Notes under the pieces: model-generated
Databases searched by the model: none
Seen by the model: the letters and a program-made list of their open reading frames with translations, nothing else
What the model was told of the DNA's origin: nothing
In this document: positions 1 through 55,902 of the stretch, in pieces
Numbering within the stretch: position 1 is the stretch's first letter
Layout of the letters: each line of letters begins with the position of its first letter
Assembly: GCA_947568835.1 (NCBI GenBank)
Contig: OX387612.1
Coordinates: 2,666,001 to 2,730,000 of the forward strand
DNA from: Protonemura montana
Taxonomy: Eukaryota; Arthropoda; Insecta; Plecoptera; Nemouridae
Direction: 5' to 3'
DNA: 64,000 nt
Program-made: the position numbers and the translations under genes

Positions 1-355
1 ATGCCGCCACGTTTCGAGTGTTAAGAAATTTCATTTCGTTATTTCTCGCAGATTACTCGCATTTGAGACTGGTTTACACTCAATTAATCTTTATTCATGC
101 TAACCTCAACGATTGACAAACATGTATCGCGATATTTTGAGTCTTGTTATTTAAATTTAGAGGTTTGTTGAAAATGGCGGCAGCAAGCGCCATCTGGTGA
201 TGCCAATCGTTACCACGTGTTGACCGCCTCGTTTGCTCAGCAGAAAGTTTAACACTGGCGCGGAAACTCTATCTGTACACGAACACTAATTGCTTTTACC
301 TAATAAATTGTGTCCAGGCTCCACAAATTGCAGCAATGACCTAATCAGAGTGGAG

Positions 356-10016
<9,661 letters not shown>

Positions 10017-10140: not shown

Positions 10141-10696
10141 ATTAGGTTAGGTTAGAATGGGTGACCTAACCTAACCTAACCTAACCTAACCTAACCTAAC
10201 CTAACCTAACCTAACCTAACCTAGCCTAACCTAACCTAACCTAACCTAACCTAACCTAACCTAACCTAACCTAACCTAACCTAACCTAACCTAACCTAAC
10301 CTAACCTAACCTTACCTAACCTAACCAAACTAACCTAACCTAACCTAACCTAACCTAACCTAACCTAACCTAACCTAACCTAACCTAACCTAACCTAACC
10401 TAACCTAACCTAACCTAACCTTACCTAACCTAACCTAACCTAACCTAACCTAACCTAACCTAACCTAACCTAATCTAACCTAACCTAACCTAACCTAATC
10501 TAACCTAACCTAAACGAACCTAACCTAACCTAACCTAATCTAACCTAACCTAACCTAACCTAACCTAACCTAACCTAACCTTACCTAACCTAACCTAACC
10601 TAACCTAACCTAACCTAACCTAACCTAACCTAACCTAATCTAACCTAACCTAACCTAACCTAACCTAACCTAACCTTAACGAACCTAACCTTACCT
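10141..10696 (+). repeat. Interstitial telomere-type (TTAGG)n block
   Basis: About 110 copies of CCTAA on the plus strand ((TTAGG)n on the minus), with scattered variants such as ccttacc, ctaatc and aaacg. At its left edge two TTAGG copies read in the opposite direction before the long CCTAA run. TTAGG is the ancestral arthropod telomere unit. Unique and genic DNA on both sides shows this is not a chromosome end. Confidence 0.92.
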
Positions 10697-10720: not shown

Positions 10721-11505
10721 GACTGGAATCCCAATCTCCTCCTGTCGTGGGTGTTGCTCTAACCAATTGAGCTACTTGGACCCCGATCTCCTCCTGTCGA
10801 GGGTGTTGCTCTAACCAATTGAGCTACTTGGACCCCGATCTCCTCCTGTCGTGGGTGTTACTCTAACCAATTGACCTACTTGGACCCCGATCTCCACCTG
10901 TCGCGGGTGTTGCTCTAACCAATTGAGCTACTTGGACCCCGATCTCCACCTGTCGCGGGTGTTGCTCTAACTCAGTGAGCTACTTGGACCCCGATCTCCA
11001 CCTGTCGTGGGTGTTGCTCTAACCAATTGAGCTACTTGGACCCCAATCTCCACCTGTCGCGGGTGTTGCTCTAACCAATTGAGCTACTTGGACCCCAATC
11101 TCCACCTGTCGCGGGTGTTGCTCTGAACCATTGAGCTACTTGGACCCCGATCTCCACCTGTCGCGGGTGTTGCTCTAACCAATTGAGCTACTTGGACCCC
11201 AATCTCCACCTGTCGCGGGTGTTGCTCTGAACCATTGAGCTACTTGGACCCCAATCTCCACCTGTCGCGGGTGTTGCTCTGAACCATTGAGCTACTTGGA
11301 CCCCAATCTCCACCTGTCGCGGGTGTTGCTCTGAACCATTGAGCTACTTGGACCCCGATCTCCACCTGTCGCGGGTGTTGCTCTAACCAATTGAGCTACT
11401 TGGACCCCAATCTCCACCTGTCGCGGGTGTTGCTCTGAACCATTGAGCTACTTGGACCCCAATCTCCACCTGTCGCGGGTGTCGCTCTAACCAATTGAGC
11501 TACTT
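10721..11505 (-). repeat. tRNA-like 52-bp tandem array, minus orientation
   Basis: About fifteen units of a tRNA-like repeat on the minus strand (plus-strand text gtcgcgggtgttgctctaac then caattgagctacttgg). Variants such as tctgaaccattgagc recur in blocks. It is the left arm of a large inverted repeat with 11636-12592 and abuts the telomere-type block. Confidence 0.85.
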
Positions 11506-11635: not shown

Positions 11636-12660
11636 GTGTCCAAGTAGCTCAATTGATTAGAGCAACACCCACGACAGGTGGAGATCGGGGTCCAAGTAGC
11701 TCAATTGGTTAGAGCAACACCCGTGACAGGTGGAGATCGGGGTCCAAGATGCTCAATTGGTTAGAGCAACACCTGCGACAAGTGGAGATCGGGGTCCAAG
11801 TAGCCCAATTGGTTAGAGCAACACCCGCGTCAGGTGGAGATCAGGGTCCAAGTAGCTCAATTGGTTAGAGTAACACCCGCGACAGGTGGAGATCGGGGTC
11901 CAAGTAGCTCAATTGGTTAGAGTAACACCCGCGACAGGTGGAGATCGGGGTCCAAGTAGCTCAATTGGTTAGAGCAACACCCGCGACAGGTGGAGATCGG
12001 GGTCCAAGTAGCTCAATTGGTTAGAGCAACACCCGCGACAGGTGGAGATCGGGGTCCAAGTAGCTCAATTGGTTAGAGCAACACCCGCGACAGGTGAAGA
12101 TCGGGGTCCAAGTAGCTCAATCGGTTAGAGCAACACCCGTGACAGGTGGAGATCGGGGTCCAAGTAGCTCAATTGGGTAGAGCAACACCCGCGACAGGTG
12201 GAGATCGGGGTCCAAGTAGCTCAATTGGTTAGAGCAACACCCGCGACAGGTGGAGATCGGGGTCCAAGTAGCTCAATTGGTTAGAGCAACACCCGCGACA
12301 GGTGGAGATCGGGGTCCAAGTAGCTCAATTGGGTAGAGCAACACCCGTGACAGGTGGAGATCGGGGTCTAAGTAGCCCAATTGGTTAGAGCAACACCCGC
12401 GACAGGTGGAGATCGGGGTCCAAGTAGCTCAATTGGTTAGAGCAACACCCGCGACAGGTGGAGATCGGGGTCCAAGTAGCTCAATTGGTTAGAGCAACAC
12501 CCGCGACAGGTGAAGATCGGGGTCCAAGTAGCTCAATTGGGTAGAGCAACACCCGCGACAGATGGAGATCGGGGTTCCAGTCCCCGTTTGGCAACATTTT
12601 TTGAGAGGTTATTAGTGTTCCGAATAATAAAATTATGACAGTGTGGCTTGCGGTCATGTT
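11636..12660 (+). repeat. tRNA-like 52-bp tandem array, plus orientation, with SINE tail
   Basis: About eighteen units of the same 52-bp repeat on the plus strand, exact period 52 (starts at 11900 and 11952). The last unit has a full T-arm-like end (ggggttccagtccccg) and the tail tttgagaggttattagtg. With the array at 10721-11505 and a spacer of about 130 bases it forms an inverted repeat. It ends about 290 bases before the start codon of the 208-residue membrane-protein gene. Confidence 0.85.
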
Positions 12661-12948: not shown

Positions 12949-15900
12949 ATGTCTGTGACAACGACGCATCGGCCGTGCCGATCGTTTAGCGACCGATATT
13001 CAGAGAGTGCGTCGTCACGCCGTGTTCTACCGATCACTGGAAGGTGATTTATTTTCTCAAGTTCAGTTGAAAGTGCTGGGAAGTTAGTTTTAGTAATGAG
13101 GGGGTGAAACGAGGGTTCTTATGGCGAACCAAAAACAAGATCTCTGCTTGGTACCGAGTAACTTGGGAATTTGGTATCGATATTTTATATCGATATTACA
13201 TTGAGATCTCAAGATATCGATACATTGATGTATCGCTATTTTTATAAGAATTGAAATAATGAAAAATAGGAAATAAATGCTCTGATATTGATGTTGACGT
13301 CACATAGTAAAGTCTAAATTAATAAATTATCTTATTTTAGTTTTCAAATACAATTGTTACCTTATTAACTCCTGAGGTTACAATGCTTATTACATTTAAT
13401 CGATTGCAAATAATCGATTGTAGACAGTCAAATATGTCGATATATTAATATATCGATTTATATCGACTTTACTGAAGTAAAATCGTTAAGTTTTTCTTTA
13501 TTATAAATCAGAAATTTAAATCAACTAGGAAGTTATAAGAATGTGGGATCCCACGAGTTAACCAATAAGCTAGATCTGTTAAACCAAGCAAATCAATCAC
13601 TAAATTATTGTAATAATTTGTTCATTTTAATGTATTTTACCGTAATTTTATCTGAAATTTGAAGTGATTTCTTTCTTTCTATTTCTTGTCGACAGACCCG
13701 AGCGTGTGTTCTTCACGAGGTCCGGGTTCGTGTCCCGGAACGTCAACACTTCACAGTTCAGAGCGCGAGGATTCTCGACCAAGATTGTGTCAAACTCTAT
13801 CCGAGGGAACTTCAATGAAAACACTGGTAACTTTCCGAGTCGGGATCTGCAGCCCGGCGAGCTCAGGGCCGATCTCACCAAAACCATTTCAATCTTGCTT
13901 ACTTGGCGTTTAATGGGAGATTTTAGACGACATTTTGAAAGATTTAAAAGAGAATGTTGAGATAAATACACACAAAAAAGTGTAAATTTAAATTTGAATT
14001 TGGCGATGATTCAGAAAGGCTTTGTCCTGTCACAGAAAGGCACTTTTTTAAAGACATCCTTGTCAACTTTTTTTTTTTAAATCCAAATACTTGTTATGTA
14101 GATATCTGCTATGATATGATCTCCTAGACACATATTCTGCAGTGTCTTTGAAGGATCTTGAAATATCTGTACGCCTATGAAAATAGAAAAAATGTAATTC
14201 GCATTAAATTGCGTGCTGTAATCGCAAAATGGTAACTATATTAAAGTATGAAAAACCTGAAAAAATTGCTAAAATATTCAGATACATATTTTTCAGAGAA
14301 GTCATAACCTCAACACTTTTATATTCTAATTGAATTCAAATTCTAAGCAATTAAAAGGCCGAGTAAAGAAGGATTGTGCAAGTTATTGGAAATGTTTTTC
14401 CAGTGAGCATTGCAACTGAAGAATCCAGAGACTCGGCGACTAGGCATCTTAACTTGTATCACTCGAAGAAACGGGGCAAGGAAATTCTCAACTCAGAAGA
14501 CTTCGCTAAGCTCGCGCATTCAAGCTCTGAAGATAAGATGGCACAAACTATTCCACGTATGTCTAAACTGACTATCATAATCTCTCTTGATAACACCGAA
14601 GTTAAGCAACACTGCGCTGGATCAGGTATTGGATGGGTGACCATCATACACATGACCAGTTCTGTTCGGGAGAGAGGTTGGAGGGATGAAAGTTAAGCAA
14701 CACTGCGCTGAGTCAGGTATTGGATGGGTGATCATCATACACATGACCAGTTCTGTTCGGGAGAGAGGTTGGAGGGATGAAAGTTAAGCAACACTGCGCT
14801 GAGTCAGGTATTGGATGGGTGACCATTATACACATGACCAGTTCTGTTCGGCAGAGAGGTGAAAGGTATGAAAGTTAAGTAACACTGCGCTGAGTCAGGT
14901 ATTGGATGGGTGATCATCATACACATGACCAGTTCTGTTTGGGAGAGAGGTTGGAGGGATGAAAGTTAAGGAACACTACGCTGAGTCAGGTATTGGACGG
15001 GTGACCATCATACACATGACCAGTTCTGTTCGGGAGAGAGGTTGGAGGGATAAAAGTTAAGCAACACTACGCTGGATCAGGTATTAGATTGGTGACCATC
15101 ATACACATGACCAGTTCTGTTCGGGAGAGAGGTTGGAGGGATAAAAGTTAAGCAACACTACGCTGGATCAGGTATTAGATGGGTGACCATCATACACATG
15201 ACCAGTTCTGTTCGGGAGAGAGGTTGGAGGGATAAAAGTTAAGCAACACTACGCTGGATCAGGTATTGAATGGGTGACCATCATACACATGACCAGTTCT
15301 GTTCGGGAGAGAGGTTGGAGGGATAAAAGTTAAGCAACACTACGCTGGATCAGGTATTGGACGGGTGACCATCATACACATGACCAGTTCTGTTCGGGAG
15401 AGAGTTTAGAGGGATAAAAGTTAAGCAACACTACGCTGGGTCAGGTATTGGATGTGTGACCATCATACACATGACCAGTTCTGTTCGGGAGAGAGGTTGG
15501 AGGGATGAAAGTTAAGGAACACTACACTGGATCAGGTATTAGATGGGTTACCACTGAACGGTTTGGCGTGTTAGAAACACACAGTTTTTCCCTCTTTACT
15601 TCTAGCTTAGGTTACGTTCATCATCATCCACTCATTCACCTACGCCAGCAGACCACTGTCACATGGCCCGTTGTCAAAACAGTGCGTCGTTAAACTGCAC
15701 AAACTAATTATAAAATTAAAGACATTATTAGTTACTAGCAGTACCCGCTGCCTGACGGCCGCTGTTGATGTTGAGGGAGTTTTGTCAGATGCCCTTTCCA
15801 AAGCCTCTATGAGACCACGGCCAAGAGTATGTACTCAGATATAAAAAATATCTTCACTTAATAATCTTGATTATTTTGATTTACAAACAGTAACGGATTC

Positions 15901-18989: not shown

Positions 18990-19785
18990 TTTATCAGATT
19001 TTACAGCATAAAACGCATGCAAAGTCAAATTTGCAGTTACTGGAGAATGAGTATAAATGATGAGGATGATGATGAACCTTACCTTGCCTAAAAGAGAGTA
19101 GGGGAAACCCGGTGCTGCAAAGTAGCCTACTCCTGTCAAAGACCAAGAGGACCACCGGCTTAACGTCCCTTCCGAAGGACGGTACAACGCGAACAACAGG
19201 ATTCCTCCACAAATCCATGCTGTCGAGAGGTTGATAAGCAAGGCGAGTGAGGTTGCTGTACTAACTTTCATCCCTCCAACCTCTCTCCCGAACAGAACTG
19301 GTCATGTGTATGATGGCCACTCATCCAATACCTGACCCAGCGCAGTGTTGCTTAACTTTCATCCCTCCAACCTCTCTCCCGAACAGAACTGGTCATAAGC
19401 ATGATGGTTACCCATCCAATACCTGACCCAACGCAGTGTTGCTTAACTTTCATCCCTCCAACCTCTCTCCCAAACAGAACTGGTCATGTGTATAATGGTC
19501 ACCCATCCAATACCCGTCTCAGCGCAGTGTTGCTTAACTTTCATCGCTCCAACCTCTCTCCCAAACAAAACTGGTCATGTATATGATGGTCACCCATCTA
19601 ATACCTGACCCAGCGCAGTGTTGCTTAACTTTCATCCCTCCAACCTCTCTCCCGAACAGAACTGGTAATGTGTTTAATGGTCACCCATCCAATACCTGAC
19701 CCAGCGCAGTGTTGCTTAACTTTCATCCCTCCAACCTCTCTCCCGAACAGAACCGATCATGTATATGATGGTCACCCTAATTTTA
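18990..19785 (-). repeat. 5S-derived SINE: tail plus about five to six 91-bp units
   Basis: On the minus strand, about five to six 5S-like units (19262-19775) lead into the tail module (19262 back to about 19045). The apparent open frame across the junction arises from the element, not from a gene. It ends near AT-rich unique DNA at 19790. Confidence 0.75.
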
Positions 19786-22586: not shown

Positions 22587-25500
22587 TCACGACTTGGCTT
22601 CTGATTTCCGAGCCGACTTCAACGTGGGAATGTTGGACGCCACCAGACCGGTCGATGTCAGGCCCAGACTCGTCCTTCGTTGCAACGTCGGCGACGAAAG
22701 CTTCCGCGCATTCAGCGACGACTTCCGATTGCGCCAGCCGTCATTCAAACTGGAAACAAAACTAACGTTACAGATTGCAAAAAATGGAGTGGTGTATTGG
22801 GATTGTTTTCGGGTGGTCTCAGGTTCGATCCTGGTAGTGAGGGTGCTTTTTCTGCCTTGAATTTGGGAAATTTTGGGCAACTCTAATATGACTACACTGC
22901 CAAATTAATAGCTACAGCCATGCTTGTAGGTGATTCTTTTGTTTGTAATAAGCTTTGATCTACACGGGTACATGAATTTGTAGGTTATCGATTCGTTTCT
23001 CCAGTAATTGATTTAAACGCATACTTACTCCAAACTTCTGCCGAGAGCAGCATGAAACAAACCACATCAGTTTGTATTTAATATAAGTTTACGTAAAAAA
23101 TATACCATTTTATACCTGATCACAAGAACTGGCATTGACCATCAAGGAAATACACGATACAAAAGTTGATGAATAGTAAAATATCATCAAAACGATGAGG
23201 CACTTGTACTTAAATGCATAAAAACATTTTTTTCCTTACGCTTTTGTTTAGCAAATCTATGGAAATTGTTAGGTACTTGTGTTTTACGAATGTGGAAGCT
23301 ACTTAACGAGTTCTACAGAGAGCTGGTCGGCAACTTTTCTTACAAATGGAAGGTAGGCTCGTTTACGGTTGGTCCGATCGGACTGTAAGGCTAAAGTGCT
23401 TCTTAACAACACCAGACAGGTTTGTCGTTAAGTATTAACACAGATGATATATTTAATTTAATTCACCACCACTTGTAAACCCTTAGGTAATAAACTAGGA
23501 ATGGAAAACACTTCCGTCTGGCTCTACCAAAATCTCGCCTCCTGGTTGAATTGTTTGTTGAAACTGTTGCCATGACGACTTCCAATCACATGCAGTGAAA
23601 TTCAGATGTTTCTGTGAGCTAGAGATCCAACTTATAGTTGAACATTTTGTTGAAACTGTTGCCATGACGACTTCCAATCACATGCAGTGAAATTCAGATG
23701 TTTCTGTGAGCTAGAGATCCAACTTATAGTTGAACATTTTGTTGAAACTGTTGCCATGACGACTTCCAATCACATGCAGTGAAATTCAGATGTTTCTGTG
23801 AGCTAGAGATCCAACTTATAGTTGAACATTTTGTTGAAACTGTTGCCATGAAGACTTCCAATCACATGCAGTGAAATTCAGGTGTTTCTGTGAGCTAGAG
23901 ATCCAACGTATAGTTGAACACTTTGGTAAAACCAGACCGAAGTAATGAAGTTGGAACTTTGCTGCAGAGAAAGTTCTTCAATATAAATAACGTGTCTCGG
24001 AGATTATCTGATAAACCAATGGGTCTGGTTCCCCGATGTCTACGCAAGCAACATCGTGGAGGTTCGATTCTAGCGAGAGCAATAGTTGACGAGGTGCAAC
24101 CACGAGAACAAGTTGACAGCAATCAGGACGAACACACCGAGAAAAAAGTCCGTTCTGGACACCAACTCTACCTGTCCCAATCGGAAGCTGAAGGATGCAG
24201 CGTGAAAAAGAAGCAGACGGCAGACGGTTAGTGTCACATTCATACAACAGCTGTTTAAAAAGTTAGGTTAAGTATAAGTCGAGAAAAAGTGGCTTATTTT
24301 TAATGGCGAGGATGATGGGATTCTAAGATAGGTGGAAAAAAAACATAAAAAACTGGTGTTAATTTTCTTTTCATGATGTTTCAACCAAAACCATCACCAT
24401 TGAACCCGCGGCAGCAAAAGCACAGTCTCCCACAAGCATCGGCTTCCACCGACCAATTACTCCAAGTTGTAAGCTATTTTCCATTTTCCATTTGCTTTGT
24501 GGATAATTCCCCATAGAGTTTTTGTCTTTTGGTAAGTCATCGACATCGACATCCCTTCAGACTCGTTCATGACTTACAAATCCCGACTTAAACTCCAAGA
24601 ACAGCTTCTCATGAAAACTTCTAAATATATCATTTACCAACTGCATATACCTTGTGTTACCTCTTAATTTAAGTTTAATTTTGTAAATAATATTTTTAAT
24701 CGTTCATGTTTATATGTAACCATGTTTCTATTAAATCACGCTTGTCGACTTGCCTACATTGTCGATAAATAAACAATGATAACAATACTAAAGTTGCGCA
24801 CTGTCTCTCTTTCCTTCTTCACAGCAATGTTTACATTCCAGATGATAGCAGACCTGTTGCCTGTTCAGACAAAGACTCACCTGACTAACGGTCCCATGTT
24901 CCCCTCCGAGGGGAGCGACTGGAGCAGTGACGGACCCGCAGACACCGGACGAAGCTGCGTACAAGTTCGAGATTATTAATAAACAAGTTTACAAGGGGAC
25001 ACGGCCGTAACGCATCAACACTCGAAACTAAAAGCACTACGCTCGGCCCACTTTAATATACAAATCTATGACAAAAGCCCGCTCTATCAGGGACAAGTAC
25101 TCTTTAATGTCCTTCCACAATCGTTGAAAGCACTTCAAAAAACAAACCGCTTCAAAACTGAACTGAAAATATTTCTTTGCAAGATATGCTTTTATTCAAT
25201 ACATGATTACCACTCACATGTAGAAGTCAGACTCTGAATATTGATAGTTTTTAGACTCATGTCTACTTGATTTATCCTTAAAGTTGTAACGAAAACTATT
25301 TGAAATGGGTTTTGAATGCTAAGTAAAGTACAACTAAATTTCCCTAAGAATTTTAGTTGTCCTTTAATTAGCATTCTAAACCCATTTCAAATAGTTTTTG
25401 ATAGACTCTGAATTATCTTTGAATTTATATACTGAATTAATAATGTAATAATTACTTGATGCTATCCTACTGTCTGTTGCTCATCTCACTTTATGTTATC

Positions 25501-30379: not shown

Positions 30380-30620
30380 CGGATGTGTTTAAGTGTCAAT
30401 CGTTTACTCTGATGTTGTTGGAAACACCGGTCCTCGTGGGATCACCGAAGTTAAGTTACATTGCGCTGGGTCAGGTATTGGATGGGTGACCATCATACAC
30501 ATGACCAGTTCTCTTCGGGAGAGAGGTTGGAGGGATAGAAGTTAAGTAACACTGCGCTGGGTCAGGTATTGGATGGATGACCACCGAACGGTTTGGCTCT
30601 TGCTCTTGTACATGCTCTTG
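30380..30620 (+). repeat. Short 5S-derived element, two units with intact 5' head
   Basis: The 5S-like 5' part (ttggaaacaccggtcctcgt then gatcaccgaagttaag) is followed by two 91-bp units, then caccgaacggtttggc and a small tgctcttgtaca repeat. It shows how the head joins the repeated unit. Confidence 0.7.
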
Positions 30621-31139: not shown

Positions 31140-31345
31140 TTTTTTTATGTCGATAACCAATTGAGCTACTTGGACCCCGATCTCCACCTGTCGCGGGTGT
31201 TGCTCTAACCAATTGAGCTACTTGGACCCTGATCTCCACCTGTCGCGGGTGTTGCTCAAACCAATTGAGCTACTTGGACATATAATTTGTTGAGATGATT
31301 TTAGTGCATTTGATGAGAATGACGGATCTCCAAGGAGTAGAACCA
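31140..31345 (-). repeat. tRNA-like element, two and a half units with conserved flank
   Basis: Minus-oriented units are followed by the conserved 5' flank of the family (attttagtgcatttgatgag then gacggatctccaaggagtag). The same flank occurs at 48595-48660 and at the centre of the inverted repeat near 11540. Confidence 0.7.
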
Positions 31346-37600: not shown

Positions 37601-40600
37601 ACTGAGCTATCCGGGCACACATAGATTCCAACTTTTTGGGCAGGAATAAGGAATCTCCTCAAAGGGAGAAAAACACCTTTTGGGCATTTCAAAAATAGTA
37701 AAATCAGTAAAATATTAAATGACAAATGAGGGTTTTTAGACTCATGTCTACTAGGATAATGAATTTGTTCGAGATCTTATTTCAGAAAATACAAAATACA
37801 TTAGTTTTTAAGTTATTGACCCTGATTATTATGTTTAGATGCATTTAGGAAGCTTGAACTTGGTAATTGTTATAATTTTATGTGGTTCTTTTGTTATCGA
37901 AAAATTGTCAGTGCTGCTCTAACCCTTGATAAAGTAACAGGTACATGTTGCGAAACGTCGGGAAATTTAGTTGTTCTTCACTTAGCATTCAAAACCCATT
38001 TCAAATAGTTTTTGTTAAAATTAATTGACAAAGTTTAAGCCAAGTTAAACTGATTTTTTTTTTTATAATTAGTGATTTGGTTAGTTGGTTAATTTAAATT
38101 TCTTCTCCACAGGTTTTAGCAACCATAAGTCAAACCACTACAACTGCGTCCCAGTCTGCCAGCTGGCTTGTCAGAACAGTACTTGTTCGACGCCAGACGG
38201 TCTCTGTTTCTGTGATCCTGGATTCCAGGACGACGGGGCCAATAAGTGCGTATCGCAGTGCGTAGAATGCGGCGACGGAGAATGCGTAGCGCCAGGGATA
38301 TGCGTTTGTAAAGATAGCTATGTAAGTGTCGGGGGAAAATGCGTTAAGAAAGATTGTGAGATCGATCAAGATTGTGTCGGTGAAAATAAAGAATGCTCCC
38401 AAGTTGGGAAGTGTGTTTGTACATATGGCTACGAAGATGCAGGAGATAATAAATGTATTCCAAAATGCATCGAAGAATGCACTTATGGAAGATGCACCGA
38501 ACCAAATAAATGCAGTTGCAACGAAGGATATGAAATAAAGGAAAATAAATGCATTCCAAAATGCATCGAAGAATGCACTTATGGAAGATGCACCGAACCA
38601 AATAAATGCAGTTGCAACGAAGGATATGAAATAAAGGAAAATAAATGCATTCCGAAATGCATCGAAGAATGCACTTATGGAAGATGCACCGAACCAAATA
38701 AATGCAGTTGCAACGAAGGATATGAAATTAAGGAAAATAAATGCATTCCGAAATGCATCGAAGAATGCACTAATGGAAACTGCACTGCACCGGACCGTTG
38801 TGTCTGTTTCACCGGGTATGACCTTGACAAGGACAACCAGTGCGTCCTTCAAGCAAGGGTGATGCCAGGGGTGATGCCAGGGGTGATGCCAGGGGTGATG
38901 ACAGGGGTGATGACAGACCACTTGCTGAAGGCTGCCGCTATCGGCGGGGGCGTGGCTGCGCTGGTCTTGCTGCTGGGGGTGATGATATGTGTGGGGATGA
39001 TGAGGCGGCGGTCCAGACGAAGGGAAGAGTGCCTTACAATGAGTGAGTTAACCAGTGGGAAGAATACATCCCACAAGATTATTCAACAGTACCGCTCAAT
39101 ATTTTTTAAATACCCATTCGTTCATCCATGTACAGGAATGTGGGTTAAAATCATAATCGTAGCAATTTTTTTGTAAAAAAAATAGCTGGCCTTACGATTC
39201 ATTTCAAAGTTAGCCTTTTCTATTTGCCTTAACTATTTTCCGTTGTAAGAATATTCAGTTTATCCTCTTCTTCTATCGACTTCGTTCTTTCTTCAACCAG
39301 TTCTGCTCCAGACATGTCCTGGTCAATACCCACTAAGCTTAAATATGTGTGCACCGAACGGTTTGGCGTGTTGGAAACACCGGTTCTCATGAGATCACCG
39401 AAGTTAAGCAACACTGCGCTGGGTCAGGTATTGGATGGGTGACCATCATACACATGACCAGTTCTGTTCGGGAGAGAGGTTGGAGGGATGAAAGTTAAGC
39501 AACACTGCGCTGGGTCAGGTATTGGATGGGTGACCATCATACACATGACCAGTTCTGTTCGGGAGAGAGGTTGGAGGGATGAAAGTTAGTACAGCAACTT
39601 CACTCGCCTTGCTTATCAACCTCTCGACAGCATGGATTTGTAGAGGAATCCTGTTGTTCGCGTTGTACCGTCCTTCGGAAGGGACGTTAAGCCGGTGGTC
39701 CCCTTGGTCTTCGACAGGAGTAGGCTACGTGCCGGCACCAGGTTTCCCCTCCTCCCTTCTAGGCTAGGTTAGGTTCATCATCATCCTCATCATCATCCAC
39801 TAATTCACCGACGCCATTAGACCAGTGCCGCATGGCCAGATGTCAAAACAGTGCGTCGTTAAACACCACAAATTAATTAAATTAATTGAATATGTGCGCC
39901 CGGATAGCTCAGTTGGTAGACCGACCTGCAATTGACAGGTTCCGAGATCGTATCCCAATTCAATCTCATATTGTTTCAGTCTAGCCAACTTTTCTGAATG
40001 TTGTACCAAACCATGTTTACAATGTCTGCAATGTTTTTAGATGAAGTCTGATTTAAATTGCAACCGCTTACAATTTGGGCATCAATTTTTGAGACGGTTT
40101 AAGTGGTGATAAAAGTTAAAAAATTTAAAATGCAATGTTATTCACAACAAAGGAAAATGCTAAAATCTGGGGAAGAAATCTAGTTATGAAACAGTTGTCA
40201 TAGGAAACTTTTGAATTTTCGATCAGAGCATGAACTCCAAATGAGCGCTCCTGGTGACAACTTTTGTCCCTAACACTGCAACCATAACCTTCAAGAAAGA
40301 CTCTGTCTCGACCTTGTACCAGCGAGTCTGAGTTTCTGAAAATCTGAACTTCAGTATCGTTCAGCTTTAGTTACTAATATGATGTGCAAGTCTTGTCAAA
40401 GAATCAATATTGACAAAAACTTGATTCCCATTCAACAGGGTTGACTTCTCTTATCCTTGATGTCGCTGGTGAGAATCACCCGATACCTCTGGACGCTGAA
40501 TACGAGGACGCCGCTCAAGATTGGCGTGGTAAGTTTGTTGTCATAAGCTGACACAAGCGTTTCCTACATAGAGTGGATAGATGACCATCATACACATGAT

Positions 40601-41804
40601 CAGATCTGTTCGGGAGAGAGGTTGGAGGGATGAAAGTTAAGCAACACTGCGCTGGGTCTGGTATTGGATGGGTGACCATCATACACATGATCAGTTCTGT
40701 TTGGGAGAGAGGTTGGAGGGATGAAAGTTAAGCAACACTGCGCTGGGTCTGGTATTGGATGGGTGACCATCATACACATGACCAGTTCTGTTTGGGAGAG
40801 AGGTTGGAGGGATGAAAGTTAAGCAACACTGCGCTGGGTCTGGTATTGGATGGGTGACCATCATACACATGATCAGTTCTGTTTGGGAGAGAGGTTGGAG
40901 GGATGAAAGTTAAGCAACACTGCGCTGGGTCTGGTATTGGATGGGTGACCATCATACACATGACCAGTTCTGTTTGGGAGAGAGGTTGGAGGGATGAAAG
41001 TTAAGCAACACTGCGCTGGGTCTGGTATTGGATGCGTGACCATCATACACATGACCAGTTCTGTTCGGGAGAGAGGTTGGAAGGATGAAAGTTAAGCAAC
41101 ACTGCGCTAGGTCATGTATTGGATGCGTGACCATCATACACATGACCAGTTCTGTTCGGGAGAGAGGTTGGAAGGATGAAAGTTAAGCAACACTGCGCTA
41201 GGTCATGTATTGGATGCGTGACCATCATACACATGACCAGTTCTGTTCGGGAGAGAGGTTGGAAGGATGAAAGTTAAGCAACACTGCGCTAGGTCATGTA
41301 TTGGATGCGTGACCATCATACACATGACCAGTTCTGTTCGGGAGAGAGGTTGGAAGGATGAAAGTTAAGCAACACTGCGCTAGGTCATGTATTGGATGCG
41401 TGACCATCATACACATGACCAGTTCTGTTCGGGAGAGAGGTTGGAGGGATGAAAGTTAAGAAACACTGCGCTGGGTCAGGTATTGGATGGGTGACCATCA
41501 TACACATAACCAGTTCTGTTCGGGAGAAGATTGGAGGTATGAAATTGTGTGAATTTTCATCGATTCTCCAGTTTTGTAAAGCGCCTTGAGAGACTGTCAA
41601 CATCTTAACTTTGTCAACCGGACAAAAGACTCAAACATTTACTCCTGTGTTGTCAGACGTCAACGCGGCGAGAGATTCCGTCTTCTTCTCCCAAGAGGTC
41701 GTCGACCTAGACACGTTTCCAAACCAACTGACGACGTTCAAAAATCTTACACCAAGAAAATAAACCCCAAGTTTTATGTAAAAAAAAAAGTATTTCAACC
41801 ATAA
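31625..41804 (+). CDS. Nimrod-like receptor A: signal peptide, NIM/EGF repeats, TM, cytoplasmic tail
   Basis: Five exons, 31625-31728, 32406-32671, 38113-39042, 40439-40528 and 41593-41804, join in phases 2, 1, 1, 1 to give 533 residues. Residues 1-21 are a signal peptide. Residues 36-124 hold EGF-like repeats of the long form seen in genes B and D (ICPA..PEN.. then C-rich). From about 135, NIM-type repeats follow (C.P.C...C..G.C..P..C.C..GY), including three near-identical 32-residue units at 243-338. A short VMPG-type stalk (12-bp tandem repeat) leads to a transmembrane helix at about 394-420, then an Arg-rich stop-transfer. The tail has Tyr motifs (AEYEDA, SNIYSCVV) and a stretch (LNFVNRTKDSNIY) that aligns with LNVVLEQDDCIY in gene B. 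NIM proteins are surface or secreted factors of insect phagocytes; a role here is inferred. The last acceptor (ccttgagag) is weak, so that exon is the least certain. Introns hold the 1-kb dimers, a 5S-SINE and a 5S-like array. Confidence 0.78.
31876..32302 (+). mobile_element. Truncated retroelement-like 3' segment, copy 2, with (CAAA)n tail
   Basis: Plus-strand partner of 5215-5640, ending in gagcttaaacaaacaaacaa, a simple-repeat tail typical of some LINE and SINE families. It lies in intron 1 of gene A, about 100 bases before exon 2. Confidence 0.58.
32755..32835 (+). repeat. tRNA-SINE tail fragment
   Basis: The tail motif (ataataaaataccccgcgca then ttgcaagcgtttgcaattta) with a short gtttgggcat start. 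The tRNA-like part is lost. It is immediately followed by the 1-kb dimer repeats. Confidence 0.55.
32838..36864 (+). repeat. Tandem AB-AB of about 1-kb repeats in gene A intron 2
   Basis: Four units start at 32838, 33764, 34840 and 35777, each with ctagcag(t/a)acccgatgcc or a variant. Lengths alternate: 926, 1076, 937, 1088. The short form has a segment around gctagccaagacaccaac; the long form has instead a segment around gataagcacttaaaattgac. So a two-unit dimer of about 2.0 kb was duplicated. A truncated relative is at 4778-5020 and a weaker one at 15737. No long open frame is present; the small ones are conserved only by duplication. Confidence 0.88.
37549..37617 (-). repeat. tRNA-like pseudogene or SINE head
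   Basis: On the minus strand it reads gcccggatagctcagttggt with an A box, and ggttcatatcccgg as a T-arm/B box. The anticodon arm does not form a clean 5-bp stem with a 7-base loop, so a working tRNA is unlikely. It lies in intron 2 of gene A. Confidence 0.5.
39355..39870 (+). mobile_element. Near-complete 5S-rRNA-derived SINE
   Basis: It starts caccgaacggtttggcg, ttggaaacaccggttctca and gatcaccgaagttaagcaac, closely resembling the 5' two thirds of arthropod 5S rRNA, including the polymerase III internal promoter region. Two and a half 91-bp units follow, then a tail of about 250 bases (cgtccttcggaagggacgt ... cagtgcgtcgttaaacacc). It lies in intron 3 of gene A. It is the reference copy for the tail fragments elsewhere. 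5S-headed SINEs (SINE3 class) are known in several animals. Confidence 0.78.
39898..39972 (+). repeat. tRNA-like pseudogene or SINE head
   Basis: It starts with the same gcccggatagctcagttggt as the copy at 37549 and has a possible anticodon stem (acctg/caggt). The T-arm is degraded (gagatcgtatccc). It follows the 5S-SINE in gene A intron 3. Confidence 0.5.
40560..41545 (+). repeat. 5S-rRNA-like 91-bp tandem array in gene A intron 4
   Basis: About eleven plus-oriented units with the gaaagttaagcaacactgcg core. A sub-block at 41050-41400 shares private variants (ggaaggatg, taggtcatgtattggatgcg), showing local amplification. It fills the last intron of receptor gene A, between donor 40529 and acceptor 41592. 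Confidence 0.82.
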
Positions 41805-48044: not shown

Positions 48045-48660
48045 CACTAATAATCTCTCAAAAATTGACTGGAACCCCGACTGGAATGCCGATCTCTAAC
48101 CAATTGAGCTACTTGAACCCCGATCTCCACCTGTCGCGGGTGTTGCTCTAACCAATTGAGCTACTTGGACCCCGATCTCCACCTGTCGCGGGTGTTGCTC
48201 TAACCAATTGAGCTACTTGGACCCCGATCTCCACCTGTCGCGGGTGTTGCTCTAACCAATTGAGCTACTTGAACCCCGATCTCCACCTGTCGCGGGTGTT
48301 GCTCTAACCAATTGAGCTACTTGCACCCCGATCTCCACCTGTCGCGGGTGTTGCTCTAACCAATTGAGCTACTTGGACCCCGATCTCCACCTGTCACGGG
48401 TGTTGCTGTAACCAATTGAGCTACTTGGACCCCGATCTCCACCTGTCACGGGTGTTGCTCTAACCAATTGAGCTACTCAAACCCCGATCTCCACCTGTCG
48501 CGGGTGTTGCTCTAACCAATTGAGATACTTGGACCCCGATCTCCACCTGTCGCGGGTGTTGCTCTAACCAATTGAGCTACTTGGACACATGATTTTTTTA
48601 GATGATTTTAGTGTATTTGTTGAGAATGACAGTTCTCCAAGGAGTAGAACCACGAAACTG
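48045..48660 (-). repeat. tRNA-like 52-bp tandem array, about ten units
   Basis: About ten minus-oriented units run from a tail remnant (ggaacactaataatctctca) to the family flank (gatgattttagtgtatttgt then ctccaaggagtagaacc). It lies downstream of gene B. Confidence 0.8.
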
Positions 48661-48875: not shown

Positions 48876-49676
48876 GGTATGATTTTATCAAAATCTCGCC
48901 TCCTAGTTGAAGTGTTTGTTGAAACTGTTGCCATGACGACTTCCAATCACATGCAGTGAAATTCAGATGTTTCTGTCAGCTAGAGATCCAACTTATAGTT
49001 GAACATTTTGTTGAAACTGTTGCTATGACGACTTCCAATCGCATGCAAGTGAAATTCAGATGTTTCTGTGAGCTAGAGATCCAACTTACAGTTCAACATT
49101 TTGTTGAAACTGTTGCCATGACGACTTCCAATCACAAGCAGTGAAATTCAGATGTTTCTGTGAGCTAGAGATTCAACTTATAGTTGAACATTTTGTTGAA
49201 ACTGTTGCCATGACGACTTCCAATCACATGCAGTGAAATTCAGATGTTTCTGTGAGCTAGAGATCCAACTTATAGTTGAACATTTTGTTGAAACTGTTGC
49301 CATGACGAATTCCAATCACAAGCAGTGAAATTCAGATGTTTCTGTGAGCTAGAGATTCAACTTATAGTTGAACATTTTGTTGAAACTGTTGCCATGACGA
49401 CTTCCAATCACATGCAGTGAAATTCAGATGTTTCTTTGAGCTAGAGATCCAACTTATAGTTGAACATTTTGTTGAAACTGTTGCCATGACGACTTCCAAT
49501 CACACGCAGTGAAATTCAGATGTTTCTGTGAGCTAGAGATCCAACTTATAGTTGAACATTTTGTTGAAACTGTTGCCATGACGACTTCCAATCACAAGCA
49601 GTGAAATTAAGATGTTTCTGTGAGCTAGAGTTATACATATTAACTTATAGTTCAATAATTTGCTAAAACCCAACCT
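48876..49676 (+). repeat. 92-bp-unit element, about eight units
   Basis: This is the longest copy, with about eight tandem 92-bp units between the conserved start (tttatcaaaatctcgcctcc) and end (tgctaaaaccc). The following ggaccataacgtt is shared with the right flank of the copy at 768-1007, so the element may extend past its inverted ends. It lies between genes B and C. Confidence 0.75.
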
Positions 49677-50280
49677 TGCTGGACCATAACGTTATGAAGA
49701 CGAGACGCAGTTAAATATTTTGCGAGTTTCGCCAGGTCGGGCAAAGAAAACATTCGAGGATACGTTGGGGATACTGTTGTGACACAAAATCGTACTTTAA
49801 GCCTGCTATTTCGCCTCCATCCCCTTTTCAAAATGTAACAAAATGTATTGGAGTTGGCTCAAGGCCTCAAGGTACACTTTGGGCAGGGAGATCGAAAACA
49901 AGAATTAAAATCACGGAATGAATGTTTACAGTATAGAAATAAGCACGGAGAAACAGTGAAGTATTGTTGAACGGCAAACAATTTTCCCACCATGAAAACT
50001 AAAATTCCATCTGAAAATAAAGTGAATCGAATCCGGGACCAAGGGACAGGTGTTCGTCAGAAACATCATGATATAGGTATCAGCTTCACATTGAAATTTC
50101 ATTTAAAATAAGCGGGAAATCCGAAGAAAAGTTTCTTTCCAGGAAGGCGTTCATCCTTCCCGAAATTCTTCTTAGAATACTCCCGGATTTCCTTGTTAAA
50201 AAGTTCCACATAGCGCTACGCATCTCTACACTAAATGTTGTTTCAGAGAATAAGTCCGAGCAAGATTTACCACATCCTAA

Positions 50281-53200
50281 CTGAAACTTTCATCTCTCCA
50301 ACCTCTCTCCCGAACAGAACTGGTAATGTGTATGATGGTCACCCATTCAATACCTGACCCAGCGCAGTGTTGCTTAACCTTCATCTCTCCAACCTCTTTC
50401 CCAAACAGAACTGGTCATGTGTATGATGGTCACCTATCCAATACCTGACCCAGCGCAGTGTTACTTAACTTTCATCCCTCCAACCTCTCTCCCGAACAGA
50501 ACTGGTAATGTGTATGTTGGTCACCTATCCAATACCTGACCCAGCGCAGTGTTGCTTAACCTTCATCTCTCCAACCTCTCTCCCAAACAGAACTGGTCAT
50601 GTGTATGATGGTCACCTATCCAATACCTAACCCAGCGCAGTGTTGCTTAACCTTCATCTCTCCAACCTCTCTCCCAAACAGAACTGGTCATGTGTATGAT
50701 GGTCACCTATCCAATACCCGACCCAGCGCAGTGTTACTTAACTTTCATCCCTCCAACCTCTCTACCGAACAGAACTGGTCATGTGTATGATGGTCACCCA
50801 TCCAATACCTGACTCAGCGCAGTGTTGCTTAACTTTCATCCCTCCAACCTCTCTCCCGAACAGAACTGGTCATGTGTTTGATGGTCACCTATCCAATACC
50901 TGACCCAGCGCAGTGTTACTTAGCTTTCATCCCTCCAACCTCTCTACCGAACAGTACTGGTCATGTGTATGATGGTCACCCATCCAATACCTGACTCAGC
51001 GCAGTGTTGCTTAACTTTCATCCATCCAACCTCTCTCCCGAACAGAACTGGTCATGTGTTTGATGGTCACCTATCCAATACCTGACCCAGCGCAGTGTTA
51101 CTTAACTTTCATCCCTCCAACCTCTCTACCGAACAGAACTGGTCATGTGTATGATGGTCACCTATCCAATACCCGACCCAGCGCAGTGTTACTTAACTTT
51201 CATCCCTCCAACCTCTCTACCGAACAGAACTGGTCATGTGTATGATGGTCACCCATCCAATACCTGACTCAGCGCAGTGTTGCTTAACTTTCATCCCTCC
51301 AACCTCTCTCCCGAACAGAACTGGTCATGTGTTTGATGGTCACCTATCCAATACCTGACCCAGCGCAGTGTTACTTAGCTTTCATCCCTCCAACCTCTCT
51401 ACCGAACAGTACTGGTCATGTTATGATGGTCACCCATCCAATACCTGACTCAGCGCAGTGTTGCTTAACTTTCATCCATCCAACCTCTCTCCCGAACAGA
51501 ACTGGTCATGTGTTTGATGGTCACCTATCCAATACCTGACCCAGCGCAGTGTTACTTAACTTTCATCCCTCCAACCTCTCTACCGAACAGAACTGGTCAT
51601 GTGTATGATGGTCACCCATCCAATACCTGACTCAGCGCAGTGTTGCTTAACTTTCATCCCTCCAACCTCTCTCCCGAACAGAACGGTCATGTGTATGATG
51701 GTCACCCATTCAATACCTGACTCAGAGCAGTGTTGCTTAACTTTCATCCCTCCAATCTCTCTCCCGAACAGAACTGGTCATGTGTATGATGGTCACCCAT
51801 CCAATACCTGACTCAGCGCAGTGTTGCTTAACTGTCATCCCTCCAACCTCTCTCCCGAACAGAACTGGTCATGTGTATGATGGTCACCCATTCAATACCT
51901 GACTCAGAGCAGTGTTGCTTAACTTTCATCCCTCCAATCTCTCTACCGAACATAACTGGTCATGTGTATGATAGTTACCCATCCAATACCTGACTCAGCG
52001 CAGTGTTGCTTAACTTTCATCCCTCCAACCTCTCTCCCGAACAGAACTGGTCATGTGTATGATGGTCACCCATCCAATACCTGACCCAGCACAGTGTTGC
52101 TTAACTGTCATCCCTCCAACCTCTCTCCCGAACAGAACTGGTCATGTGTATGATGGTCACCCATTCAATACCTGACTCAGAGCAGTGTTGCTTAACTTTC
52201 ATCCCTCCAACCTCTCTCCCGAACAGAACTGGTAATGTGTATGATGGTCACCCATTCAATACCTGACCCAGCGCAGTGTTGCTTAACCTTCATCTCTCCA
52301 ACCTCTTTCCCAAACAGAACTGGTCATGTGTATGATGGTCACCTATCCAATACCTGACCCAGCGCAGTGTTACTTAACTTTCATCCCTCCAACCTCTCTC
52401 CCGAACAGAACTGGTAATGTGTATGATGGTCACCTATCCAATACCTGACCCAGCGCAGTGTTGCTTAACCTTCATCTCTCCAACCTCTCTCCCAAACAGA
52501 ACTGGTCATGTGTATGATGGTCACCTATCCAATACCTGACCCAGCGCAGTGTTGCTTAACCTTCATCTCTCCAACCTCTCTCCCAAACAGAACTGGTCAT
52601 GTGTATGATGGTCACCTATCCAATACCCGACCCAGCGCCGTGTTACTTAACTTTCATCCCTCCAACCTCTCTACCGAACACAACTGGTCATGTGTATGAT
52701 GGTCACCCATCCAATACCTGACTCAGCGCAGTGTTGCTTAACTTTCATCCCTCCAACCTCTCTCCCGAACAGAACTGGTCATGTGTTTGATGGTCACCTA
52801 TCCAATACCTGACCCAGCGCAGTGTTACTTAACTTTCATCCCTCCAACCTCTCTACCGAACAGAACTGGTCATGTGTATGATGGTCACCCATCCAATACC
52901 TGACTCAGCGCAGTGTTGCTTAACTTTCATCCCTCCAACCTCTCTCCCGAACAGAACTGGTCATGTGTTTGATGGTCACCTATCCAATACCTGACCCAGC
53001 GCAGTGTTACTTAACTTTCATCCCTCCAACCTCTCTACCGAACAGAACTGGTCATGTGTATGATGGTCACCCATCCAATACCTGACTCAGCGCAGTGATG
53101 CTTAACTTTCATCCCTCCAACCTCTCTCCCGAACAGAACGGTCATGTGTATGATGGTCACCCATTCAATACCTGACTCAGAGCAGTGTTGCTTAACTTTC

Positions 53201-55613
53201 ATCCCTCCAATCTCTCTCCCGAACAGAACTGGTCATGTGTATGATGGTCACCCATCCAATACCTGACTCAGCGCAGTGTTGCTTAACTGTCATCCCTCCA
53301 ACCTCTCTCCCGAACAGAACTGGTCATGTGTATGATGGTCACCCATTCAATACCTGACTCAGAGCAGTGTTGCTTAACTTTCATCCCTCCAATCTCTCTA
53401 CCGAACAGAACTGGTCATGTGTATGATAGTCACCCATCCAATACCTGACTCAGCGCAGTGTTGCTTAACTTTCATCCCTCCAACCTCTCTCCCGAACAGA
53501 ACTGGTCATGTGTATGATGGTCACCCATCCAATACCTGACCCAGCACAGTGTTGCTTAACTGTCATCCCTCCAACCTCTCTCCCGAACAGAACTGGTCAT
53601 GTGTATGATGGTCACCCATTCAATACCTGACTCAGAGCAGTGTTGCTTAACTTTCATCCCTCCAACCTCTCTCCCGAACAGAACTGGTCATGTGTATGAT
53701 GGTCACCCATCCAATACCTGACCCAGCGCAGTGTTGCTTAACTTTCATCCCTCCAACCTCTCTCCCGAACAGAACTGGTCATGTGTATGATGGTCACCCA
53801 TCCAATACTTGACCCAGCGCAGTGTTGCTTAACTTTCATCTCTCCAACCTCTCTCCCAAACAGAACTGGTCATGTGTATGATGGTCACCTATCCAATACC
53901 TGACCCAGCGCAGTGTTGGTTATCCTTCATCTCTCCAACCTCTCTCCCAAACAGAACTGGTCATGTGTATGATGGTCACCTATCCAATACCCGACCCAGC
54001 GCAGTGTTACTTAACTTTCATCCCTCCAACCTCTCTACCGAACAGAACTGGTCATGTGTATGATGGTCACCCATCCAATACCTGACTCAGCGCAGTGTTG
54101 CTTAACTTTCATCCCTCCAACCTCTCTCCCGAACAGAACTGGTCATGTGTTTGATGGTCACCTATCCAATACCTGACCCAGCGCAGTGTTACTTAACTTT
54201 CATCCCTCCAACCTCTCTACCGAACAGAACTGGTCATGTGTATGATGGTCACCCATCCAATACCTGACTCAGCGCAGTGTTGCTTAACTTTCATCCCTCC
54301 AACCTCTCTCCCGAACAGAACTGGTCATGTGTTTGATGGTCAGCTATCCAATACCTGACCCAGCGCAGTGTTACTTAACTTTCATCCCTCCAACCTCTCT
54401 ACCGAACAGAACTGGTCATGTGTATGATGGTCACCCATCCAATACCTGACTCAGCGCAGTGTTGCTTAACTTTCATCCCTCCAACCTCTCTCCCGAACAG
54501 AACGGTCATGTGTATGATGGTCACCCATTCAATACCTGACTCAGAGCAGTGTTGCTTAACTTTCATCCCTCCAATCTCTCTCCCGAACAGAACTGGTCAT
54601 GTGTATGATGGTCACCCATCCAATACCTGACTCAGCGCAGTGTTGCTTAACTGTCATCCCTCCAACCTCTCTCCCGAACAGAACTGGTCATGTGTATGAT
54701 GGTCACCCATTCAATACCTGACTCAGAGCAGTGTTGCTTAACTTTCATCCCTCTAATCTCTCTACCGAACAGAACTGGTCATGTGTATGATAGTCACCCA
54801 TCCAATACCTGACTCAGCGCAGTGTTGCTTAACTTTCATCCCTCCAACCTCTCTCCCGAACAGAACTGGTCATGTGTATGATGGTCACCCATCCAATACC
54901 TGACCCAGCGCAGTGTTGCTTAACTTTCATCCCTCCAACCTCTCTCCCGAACAGAACTGGTCATGTGTATGATGGTCACCCATCCAATACTTGACCCAGC
55001 GCAGTGTTGCTTAACTTTCATCCCTCTAATCTCTCTACCGAACAGAACTGGTCATGTGTATGATAGTCACCCATCCAATACCTGACTCAGCGCAGTGTTG
55101 CTTAACTTTCATCCCTCCAACCTCTCTCCCGAACAGAACTGGTCATGTGTATGATGGTCACCCATCCAATACCTGACCCAGCGCAGTGTTGCTTAACTTT
55201 CATCCCTCCAACCTCTCTCCCGAACAGAACTGGTCATGTGTATGATGGTCACCCATCCAATACTTGACCCAGCGCAGTGTTGCTTAACTTTCATCCCTCC
55301 AACCTCTCTCCCGAACAAAACTGGTCATGTGTATGATGGTCACCCATCCAATACTTGACCCAGCGCAGTGTTGCTTAACTTTCATCCCTCCAACCTCTCT
55401 CCCGAACAGAACTGGTCATGTGTATGATGGTCACCCATCCAATACTTGACCCAGCGCAGTGTTGCTTAACTTTCATCCCTCCAATCTCTCTCCTGAACAG
55501 AACTGGTCATGTGTATGATGGTCACCCATTCAATACCTGACCCAGCGCAGTGTTGCTTAACTTCGGTGATGATCTAACGAGAACCGTTGTTTCCAACATG
55601 CCAAACCGTCGGT
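50281..55613 (-). repeat. 5.3-kb satellite of about 58 units of a 5S-rRNA-like 91-bp repeat
   Basis: All units run on the minus strand. The transcript-sense start, at 55613-55561, is a fuller 5S-like head (ggtttggcatgttggaaac then accgaagttaagcaac), so the array reads as one element whose inner 91 bases were amplified. Each unit keeps the middle and C-box-like parts of 5S rRNA (ggtattggatgggtgacc). Variants recur over about 1.91 kb (21 units) and about 2.82 kb (31 units), which is higher-order structure. Short open frames repeating CMMVTHPIPD are by-products. It lies between genes B and C. Confidence 0.88.
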
Positions 55614-55902
55614 CCTTGGTTCCTTGTTATAAAGTTCCCTATAGCGCTATGATCCCTGGACGCATCAACGCCTAGGCCGCTAAATATTACATCAGAGCGT
55701 GGTTTCACCACATCCTGAAGCAATGCTTATCAAGAGGCTCTGTACTTTGAACAGACTGCTTGTCAGTCTCCTGGTAGCTGTGCCAGAGCAAGCATTTGTT
55801 TCACGAGCAACGCGTCGTGTTGTCATGGAAACCGATTCAAATAGTGACACTGTAACGTCCAGTTATTCGATTAGCGAGCTTTAAGAGCAAGAAACACAAG
55901 CA

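What the first reader, a model, noticed from the sequence alone, without database searches (positions are those of the whole stretch)
50281..55613. A 5S-rRNA-derived SINE core has become a 5.3-kb satellite
The 91-bp unit carries the 5S internal promoter region and repeats about 58 times behind one fuller 5S-like head. The same unit occurs in 2 to 11 copies in at least five other places, some with a common SINE tail. So element spread and tandem growth act on the same RNA-gene fragment. If TFIIIA still binds, the array is a series of polymerase III promoters.
Basis: partly seen in the sequence, partly recalled or inferred. Interest (0 to 1): 0.76.

Follow-up and report, generated by a model that had tools for sequence, protein, structure and literature searches.

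The report
Jumping 5S-gene fragment with variable repeats
The 5.3-kb array is an unusually long copy of a very common jumping element made from a 5S ribosomal RNA gene, whose promoter-bearing part is repeated a different number of times in different copies.

Summary
Window 50285-55563 is 58.1 copies of a 91-bp unit (94% match), minus strand, behind one 50-bp 5S 5'-part at 55564-55613. The unit is 5S-derived: head plus first unit of the copy at 39353 aligns to this genome's own 5S gene at 66 of 77 columns, score 95 against a shuffled maximum of 23.

It is one end of a range. The genome carries a 5S-derived SINE family: head + n x 91 bp + ~283-bp tail + AAT-type end, with target-site duplications. 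Junctions at up to 2 mismatches: 9,643 unit-tail and 26,802 unit-unit, about 2.4 Mb or 0.9% of the genome. In 30 tail-anchored copies n runs from 1 to at least 17, mean 3.8.

Short arrays mostly moved as arrays: units of one copy are barely more alike than units of different copies. The 58-unit array grew locally: 48 of 57 units have their nearest relative inside it. I read this as a SINE with a VNTR like that of SVA elements, the VNTR being its own 5S promoter region. Nothing here shows active promoters, and the promoter boxes are not the better-conserved part.

The parts
50285..55563 (-). 58.1 tandem copies of the 91-bp type-A unit (5S from position 49 on, with A box, IE region and C-box core, plus SINE-specific sequence)
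55564..55613 (-). single 5S-like 5' head (5S positions 1-48) of the array
50189..50278 (+). left flank with a diverged copy of an about 100-bp direct repeat also found beyond the head (local score 66 against a maximum of 34 in 500 shuffles)
55620..55716 (+). right-flank copy of the same diverged direct repeat
39353..39888 (+). complete SINE copy: head 39353-39400, two units 39401-39582, tail 39588-39870, AATTAATTAA-type end, candidate target-site duplication AATATGTG
40574..41544 (+). headless array of the 91-bp unit, 10.7 copies, no tail
14599..15553 (+). array of 10.5 units; preceded by a head remnant and ending in the type-B junction GGGTTACCA|CTGAACGG
19262..19777 (-). headless array of 5.7 units, followed on the minus strand by the SINE tail (about 19060-19256)
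30448..30583 (+). 1.5 units preceded by a head-like stretch and ending in the type-B junction GGATGACCA|CCGAACGG

Best explanation
This is a SINE of the 5S-rRNA-derived class. Shown: copies have the layout 5S head (48 bp) + one or more 91-bp promoter-bearing modules + an about 283-bp tail ending in short AAT/AATA/AATC repeats, inserted with target-site duplications. Inferred: the one-module form came first, the module was duplicated between two AAGTTA stretches (5S position 49 and the module/tail border), and elements with two or more modules became mobile too, copied by a LINE reverse transcriptase. Shown: copies with many modules carry target-site duplications, and their modules are almost as different from each other as modules from different loci, from which I infer that short arrays mostly predate insertion. 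Inferred from the internal pattern: at single loci the module number then changes at the DNA level (slippage or unequal exchange). The window's 58-unit array is such a local expansion on a copy without its tail. The whole works like the VNTR of primate SVA/LAVA elements, but here the repeat is the element's own Pol III promoter region.
For: 5S origin: Rfam; alignment to the genome's own 5S, 66 of 77 columns, score 95 against shuffled maximum 23, unit alone 51 against 24. Helix I can pair at 8 of 8 positions with letters that differ from the cellular 5S. SINE nature: target-site duplications of at least 9 bp in 18 of 53 complete copies against 1.0% in mismatched controls; of at least 7 bp in 6 of 9 (n=1), 19 of 31 (n=2) and 5 of 12 (n>=3) against 6-9%. 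Abundance. Moving as arrays: two-unit copies, 0.044 within a locus against 0.049 between loci; 27 arrays of n>=3, 0.050 against 0.059. Local growth of the 58-mer: 48 of 57 nearest neighbours within it; 30 distinct types in 57 full units, identity peaks at lags 2, 14, 16, 21, 30 and 35 units; it holds 7 of 167 genome copies of one variant but 56 of 26,802 unit-unit junctions.
Against: Position test: first units across 62 elements are only weakly alike (p 0.09) and last units not at all (p 0.96), so no fixed multi-unit master element is seen. Gene conversion between loci could also make within- and between-locus distances similar. Within-array distance is below between-array distance in 23 of 27 arrays of n>=3, so some local turnover happens in short arrays too. 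Seven of 12 copies with n>=3 show no duplication of 7 bp or more. n does not correlate with tail identity (rho 0.11, p 0.66, 18 copies; rho 0.18, p 0.31, 35 copies). The partner LINE was not identified: the tail search returned 0 candidates, and the tool skips very common words.
Confidence: 0.74

Rival explanations
1. The unit number changes during insertion: the LINE reverse transcriptase stops at the 5' edge of the module and switches template back to the AAGTTA at its 3' edge, laying down several modules in one event.
For: The 5' ends of headless copies pile up at the module start: 11 of 25 lie within positions -8 to +3, binomial p 2.8e-6, the same place as the tandem junction. The junction is a 6-bp microhomology. 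n is unrelated to tail identity.
Against: The pile-up was noticed before it was counted. Of the 11, L033 and L079 have head-like remnants further upstream, and L012 and L030 are short unit pieces, so the count of simple truncations is lower. Module diversity within short arrays looks older than insertion. The 58-mer shows block repeats expected of DNA-level exchange.
Confidence: 0.2
2. The module is multiplied because extra internal Pol III promoters help the element: truncated copies still carry a promoter and transcription rises.
For: Two tandem types with different junctions overlap in 5S 49-92, that is A box, IE and C-box core (box borders recalled): type A (5S 49 onward) and type B (5S 1 to about 92, period 92, 2,078 junctions). 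A tRNA-derived SINE in the same genome also repeats its 52-bp A-box-bearing part, 13,782 junctions of one variant.
Against: Promoter boxes are not clearly more conserved than the rest of the unit (variability A box 0.034/0.020, IE 0.099/0.095, C box 0.035/0.039, rest 0.026/0.025 in 58-mer/other loci). Only 1 of 25 headless copies starts in the window 38-48 predicted for an internal start site; three more, at 31, 35 and 36, lie just outside it. A 92-bp family in an element with terminal inverted repeats is also internally tandem.
Confidence: 0.12
3. A plain 5S-gene-derived satellite, grown in place from degenerate 5S rDNA and spread by recombination, not a mobile element (PcP190-like).
For: Long arrays exist and the unit is 5S-derived.
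Against: Thousands of dispersed heads and tails, target-site duplications and a constant head-unit-tail order in the copies parsed.
Confidence: 0.02
4. The 58-unit length is an assembly artefact.
For: Copy number of long arrays can be mis-assembled; reads were not available.
Against: 30 distinct unit types in 57 full units, in blocks that recur, with flanks that are not part of the array. An array of 22 matched units occurs at C1:61901-64600 (L079).
Confidence: 0.05

Closest known systems
5S rRNA-derived SINEs (SINE3 class; insect examples PxSE4 and PxSE5 of Plutella, passages of PMC8010984 seen)
   Same: 5S head with A, IE and C boxes, a body, a tail with short 3' repeats, thousands of copies
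   Different: The Plutella families are given as 389-bp elements and the word 'tandem' does not occur in the text. Here the promoter module is repeated 1 to 58 times.
VNTR composite retrotransposons SVA and LAVA (PMC4432496, abstract and section 14 read)
   Same: Non-autonomous retroelement with a central variable-number tandem repeat; the paper reports microhomology-driven expansion and contraction at the DNA level
   Different: The VNTR there consists of short GC-rich repeats (30-50 bp in the abstract); here the repeat unit is the 91-bp 5S promoter region
Cassandra TRIM elements of plants (PMC7215508, abstract read)
   Same: 5S sequence with Pol III promoter in a non-autonomous retroelement that forms long tandem arrays
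   Different: LTR-type element; arrays of at least 12 LTRs with the internal domain as spacer; here a SINE with a 91-bp internal unit
PcP190 satellite of frogs (PMC11675491, passages read)
   Same: 5S-derived tandem repeat
   Different: About 190-bp unit described as a satellite; the words SINE, promoter and polymerase III do not occur in the text
PcH-sat of limpets, from a Nin-SINE (PMC11121367, passages read)
   Same: Satellite derived from a SINE
   Different: Built from another part of the SINE; the authors say it lacks boxes A and B
Dimeric SINEs in general (passage of PMC5998507)
   Same: The passage says SINEs are usually monomeric or tandem dimeric
   Different: Here n is open-ended and it is an internal module, not the whole element, that repeats

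Membership tests
5S-derived SINE | 5S rRNA-related 5' head | tested here: met
   Rfam and alignment to own 5S
5S-derived SINE | A box, IE and C box present in sequence | tested here: met
   A-box region and C-box core align to own 5S; [quoted passage not shown] box borders recalled)
5S-derived SINE | dispersed copies with target-site duplications | tested here: met
   18 of 53 with at least 9 bp against 1.0% in controls
5S-derived SINE | tail with short 3' repeats | tested here: met
   AAT/AATA/AATC repeats at the ends of most of the 53 complete copies
5S-derived SINE | tail shared with a partner LINE | tested here: inconclusive
   tail search returned 0 candidates, and the tool skips very common words
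5S-derived SINE | transcription by Pol III | not testable with these tools
   no RNA or ChIP data
VNTR composite retrotransposon (as a way of working) | variable internal repeat number between inserted copies | tested here: met
   n = 1 to at least 17 in 30 tail-anchored copies
SVA/LAVA family (as membership) | Alu-like 5' domain and short GC-rich VNTR | tested here: not met
   5S head and 91-bp unit; an analogue, not a member
satellite DNA | long head-to-tail arrays | tested here: met
   58.1 units at this locus
satellite DNA | location in heterochromatin | not testable with these tools
   no cytology or chromatin data
foldback or TIR DNA transposon | paired inverted arms around a shared core | tested here: not met
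   the cores of L046 and L047 show no similarity beyond chance-level matches of 12-23 bases, and the arms are separate SINE copies

The most novel reading that the evidence does not exclude
SINEs of this genome grow by multiplying their own internal Pol III promoter. Two duplications of the 5S SINE with different junctions (types A and B) and one of a tRNA SINE keep the promoter core inside the unit, with borders close to its edges, because factor-bound Pol III promoters stall replication or reverse transcription there and because promoter-rich copies survive 5' truncation. The long arrays would then be clusters of TFIIIA sites able to titrate the 5S transcription machinery.
Probability: 0.12. 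Interest if true: 0.78.

Novelty: new variant of a known kind. Interest (0 to 1): 0.52.

Why it matters
It catches a mobile element between SINE and satellite, with the stages side by side in one genome: single-module copies, mobile short arrays and a locally grown long array. Because n varies over thousands of copies, the old question whether satellites grow at insertion or afterwards can be tested by counting. If the units bind TFIIIA, the genome holds some 27,000 extra potential sites besides its real 5S genes.

Tried and rejected
Inverted-arm DNA transposon: in the list plus and minus arrays on C1 seemed paired about 3.4 kb apart. Two of the three pairs were fetched (L046, L047); they are opposed SINE copies with unrelated cores. 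Rejected.

Strand bias near chromosome ends: the list showed only plus arrays in the first 2.3 Mb of C1. Six fetched loci of that stretch, L049, L053, L057, L058, L060 and L063, carry exact minus-strand junctions that the list left out, so the lists are not strand-complete and the bias was dropped.

Internal start sites: I predicted that headless copies would begin about 49 bp before an A box (unit position about 43). 1 of 25 did. Not supported.

Missing TTTT terminators in the array: 1 on the sense strand against 17.5 expected from 200 single-base shuffles, but AAAA is also 0, so this is unit composition, not evidence for selection.

Older copies having more units: no correlation. Partner LINE through the tail: one search returned nothing, which shows nothing. 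First units as a common lineage: p 0.09, last units p 0.96.

Count caveats: the head-unit pattern (10,570) also fits each unit of type-B arrays, and the cellular 5S differs from it by two letters only, so it over-counts elements; I therefore use the unit-tail count (9,643). Box borders used are recalled 5S numbering, not from a call.

Literature: the ten searches listed no title or abstract start describing a 5S SINE with a repeated promoter module; several were capped lists (for example 20 of 444 and 15 of 145). One search ('5S rRNA-derived SINE' with 'tandem') gave one paper, whose two passages do not describe it. Only openly licensed papers are held, so this absence is weak.

Rows dropped: the element parser dropped tail matches under about 25 bp; one search skipped first units of 25 bp or less and starts within 60 bases of a locus end. 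Locus L009 is the window's own copy; it was left out of the tests but was. In one search, 29 two-unit copies became 27 because two loci held two each. Loci L080-L087 were looked at only.
Full report
What is there. Window positions 50285-55563 hold 58.1 copies of a 91-bp unit, minus strand in the 5S sense, with a single 50-bp 5S-like head at 55564-55613. Five further stretches of the unit lie in the window. The 5S identity is not limited to short blocks: the head plus first unit of the copy at 39353 aligns with the genome's own 5S gene (from L001) over 77 columns with 66 identities, score 95 against a maximum of 23 in 500 shuffles; the unit alone scores 51 against 24. From about 5S position 93 on the letters diverge, yet the 3' part CTGTTCGG can pair with the head's CCGAACGG at 8 of 8 positions, as the cellular 5S does with other letters. 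The organism is probably an arthropod (inference): TTAGG-type repeats and a mitochondrial COX1 that reads open with the invertebrate mitochondrial code.

What it belongs to. Search hits for the copy at 39353 gave a clean element: head (48 bp), n units, tail (about 283 bp) and a short AAT-type end. Complete copies are flanked by target-site duplications: 18 of 53 have a match of at least 9 bp against 1.0% in mismatched controls; by n, 6 of 9, 19 of 31 and 5 of 12 have at least 7 bp for n=1, n=2 and n>=3, against 6-9%. This is a SINE. Genome-wide counts at up to 2 mismatches are 9,643 unit-tail and 26,802 unit-unit junctions; the reversed control patterns gave 0 and 1. That is about 3.8 units per tailed copy. 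Head-unit junctions number 10,570, but that pattern also fits type-B units and, at two mismatches, the cellular 5S, so it is an upper figure. Thirty tail-anchored copies (all from C1, exact tail junction, so likely young) have n=1 in 12 of 30 and n>=5 in 10 of 30, mean 3.8, the longest cut off at 17. Five 4-kb stretches from chromosome middles held no unit.

How arrays arise and move. If copies inserted with one unit and then grew, units of one copy should be much alike. They are not: 0.044 within against 0.049 between loci for 27 two-unit copies, and 0.050 against 0.059 for 27 arrays of three or more (within is lower in 23 of 27). So I infer that most short arrays carry diversity older than their insertion. 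The 58-unit array behaves differently: 48 of 57 full units have their nearest relative in the same array, against 43 of 245 units of the other arrays (where window copies are also present as L009, which lowers that second figure). It has 30 unit types in 57 units, and identity peaks at lags of 2, 14, 16, 21, 30 and 35 units. One variant found 167 times in the genome occurs 7 times here, although the array holds only 56 of the 26,802 unit-unit junctions. It therefore most likely grew in place. It lacks its tail, and both flanks carry a diverged about 100-bp direct repeat whose role is unknown.

The start of the repeat. The unit begins at AAGTTA (5S 49-54) and the tail begins after another AAGTTA, so the tandem junction is a 6-bp microhomology. 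A second type (B) joins 5S position 92 or so to position 1 with a 92-bp period at C1:1225130-1225612; its junction occurs 2,078 times, and the same junction ends the arrays at window 15553 and 30583. Both unit types contain the A box, the IE region and the C-box core (borders recalled). The ends of headless copies pile up at the type-A border (11 of 25, counted after it was noticed, and some of the 11 are not simple truncations), which would fit reverse transcriptase stopping there.

Promoter function. I looked for signs that the units are kept as promoters and found none: the boxes vary about as much as or more than the rest, the A box in other loci being slightly below it; exact A- and C-box cores survive in 31 and 24 of about 58 units against 41 and 34 for two other motifs; and headless copies do not begin at predicted internal start sites (1 of 25, with three more just outside). 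These are tests on sequence only; transcription was not tested.

Same habit in other elements. A tRNA-derived SINE repeats a 52-bp A-box-bearing part (13,782 junctions of one variant, 3,998 SINE 3' junctions). A 92-bp family (2,200 junctions at up to 3 mismatches) sits inside a small element with clear terminal inverted repeats in two of four window copies. Tandem growth inside mobile elements is thus not limited to Pol III promoters here, which speaks for a DNA-level cause.

Known relatives. 5S SINEs, including insect ones, are known (passages of PMC8010984). VNTR composite retrotransposons show DNA-level, microhomology-driven repeat change (PMC4432496, abstract and one section). Tandem arrays of 5S-bearing retroelements are known for Cassandra in plants (PMC7215508 abstract). 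5S-derived and SINE-derived satellites are known (passages of PMC11675491, and PMC11121367). The combination seen here, a SINE whose promoter module is its mobile VNTR, was not found in the searches named under Tried and rejected. I file it as a new variant of a known kind.

Noticed in passing
window 7178-7497, 10730-11505, 11638-12575, 31154-31279, 48094-48586: Arrays of a 52-bp unit from a tRNA-derived SINE; genome-wide 13,782 unit junctions of one variant and 3,998 SINE 3' junctions.
   Followed up: partly
window 806-1001, 8324-8698, 23554-23932, 48904-49661: 92-bp tandem units inside a small element; terminal inverted repeats clear in two of four copies, 2,200 junctions genome-wide.
   Followed up: partly
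window 10164-10696: About 107 copies of ACCTA (TTAGG-type telomere repeat) far from the contig end, close beside a 52-bp tRNA-SINE array.
   Followed up: no
C1:1225130-1225612 (L078): Second tandem type of the 5S SINE, 92-bp period, made of 5S 1 to about 92, junction with microhomology ACC; 2,078 junctions genome-wide.
   Followed up: partly
L046 (C1:8951001-8957500): Two opposed SINE copies share an inverted copy of at least 60 bp of upstream flank; the left copy has target-site duplication ACATCGACC, the right one none found, so this may be an inverted duplication.
   Followed up: partly
C2, places listed: 40 of 52 listed exact tRNA-SINE 3' junctions on C2 lie within 5 Mb of an end of the 29.8-Mb contig; the list holds exact matches only and may be incomplete.
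   Followed up: no
C11:70-105743: Cellular 5S genes at the start of contig C11 in mixed orientation, at first with a period of about 9.5 kb.
   Followed up: no
C4:5760925-5762262 against C34:3504-4841: A COX1 copy on C4 scoring the same as that on the probable mitochondrial contig C34, so perhaps a recent nuclear insertion of mitochondrial DNA.
   Followed up: no
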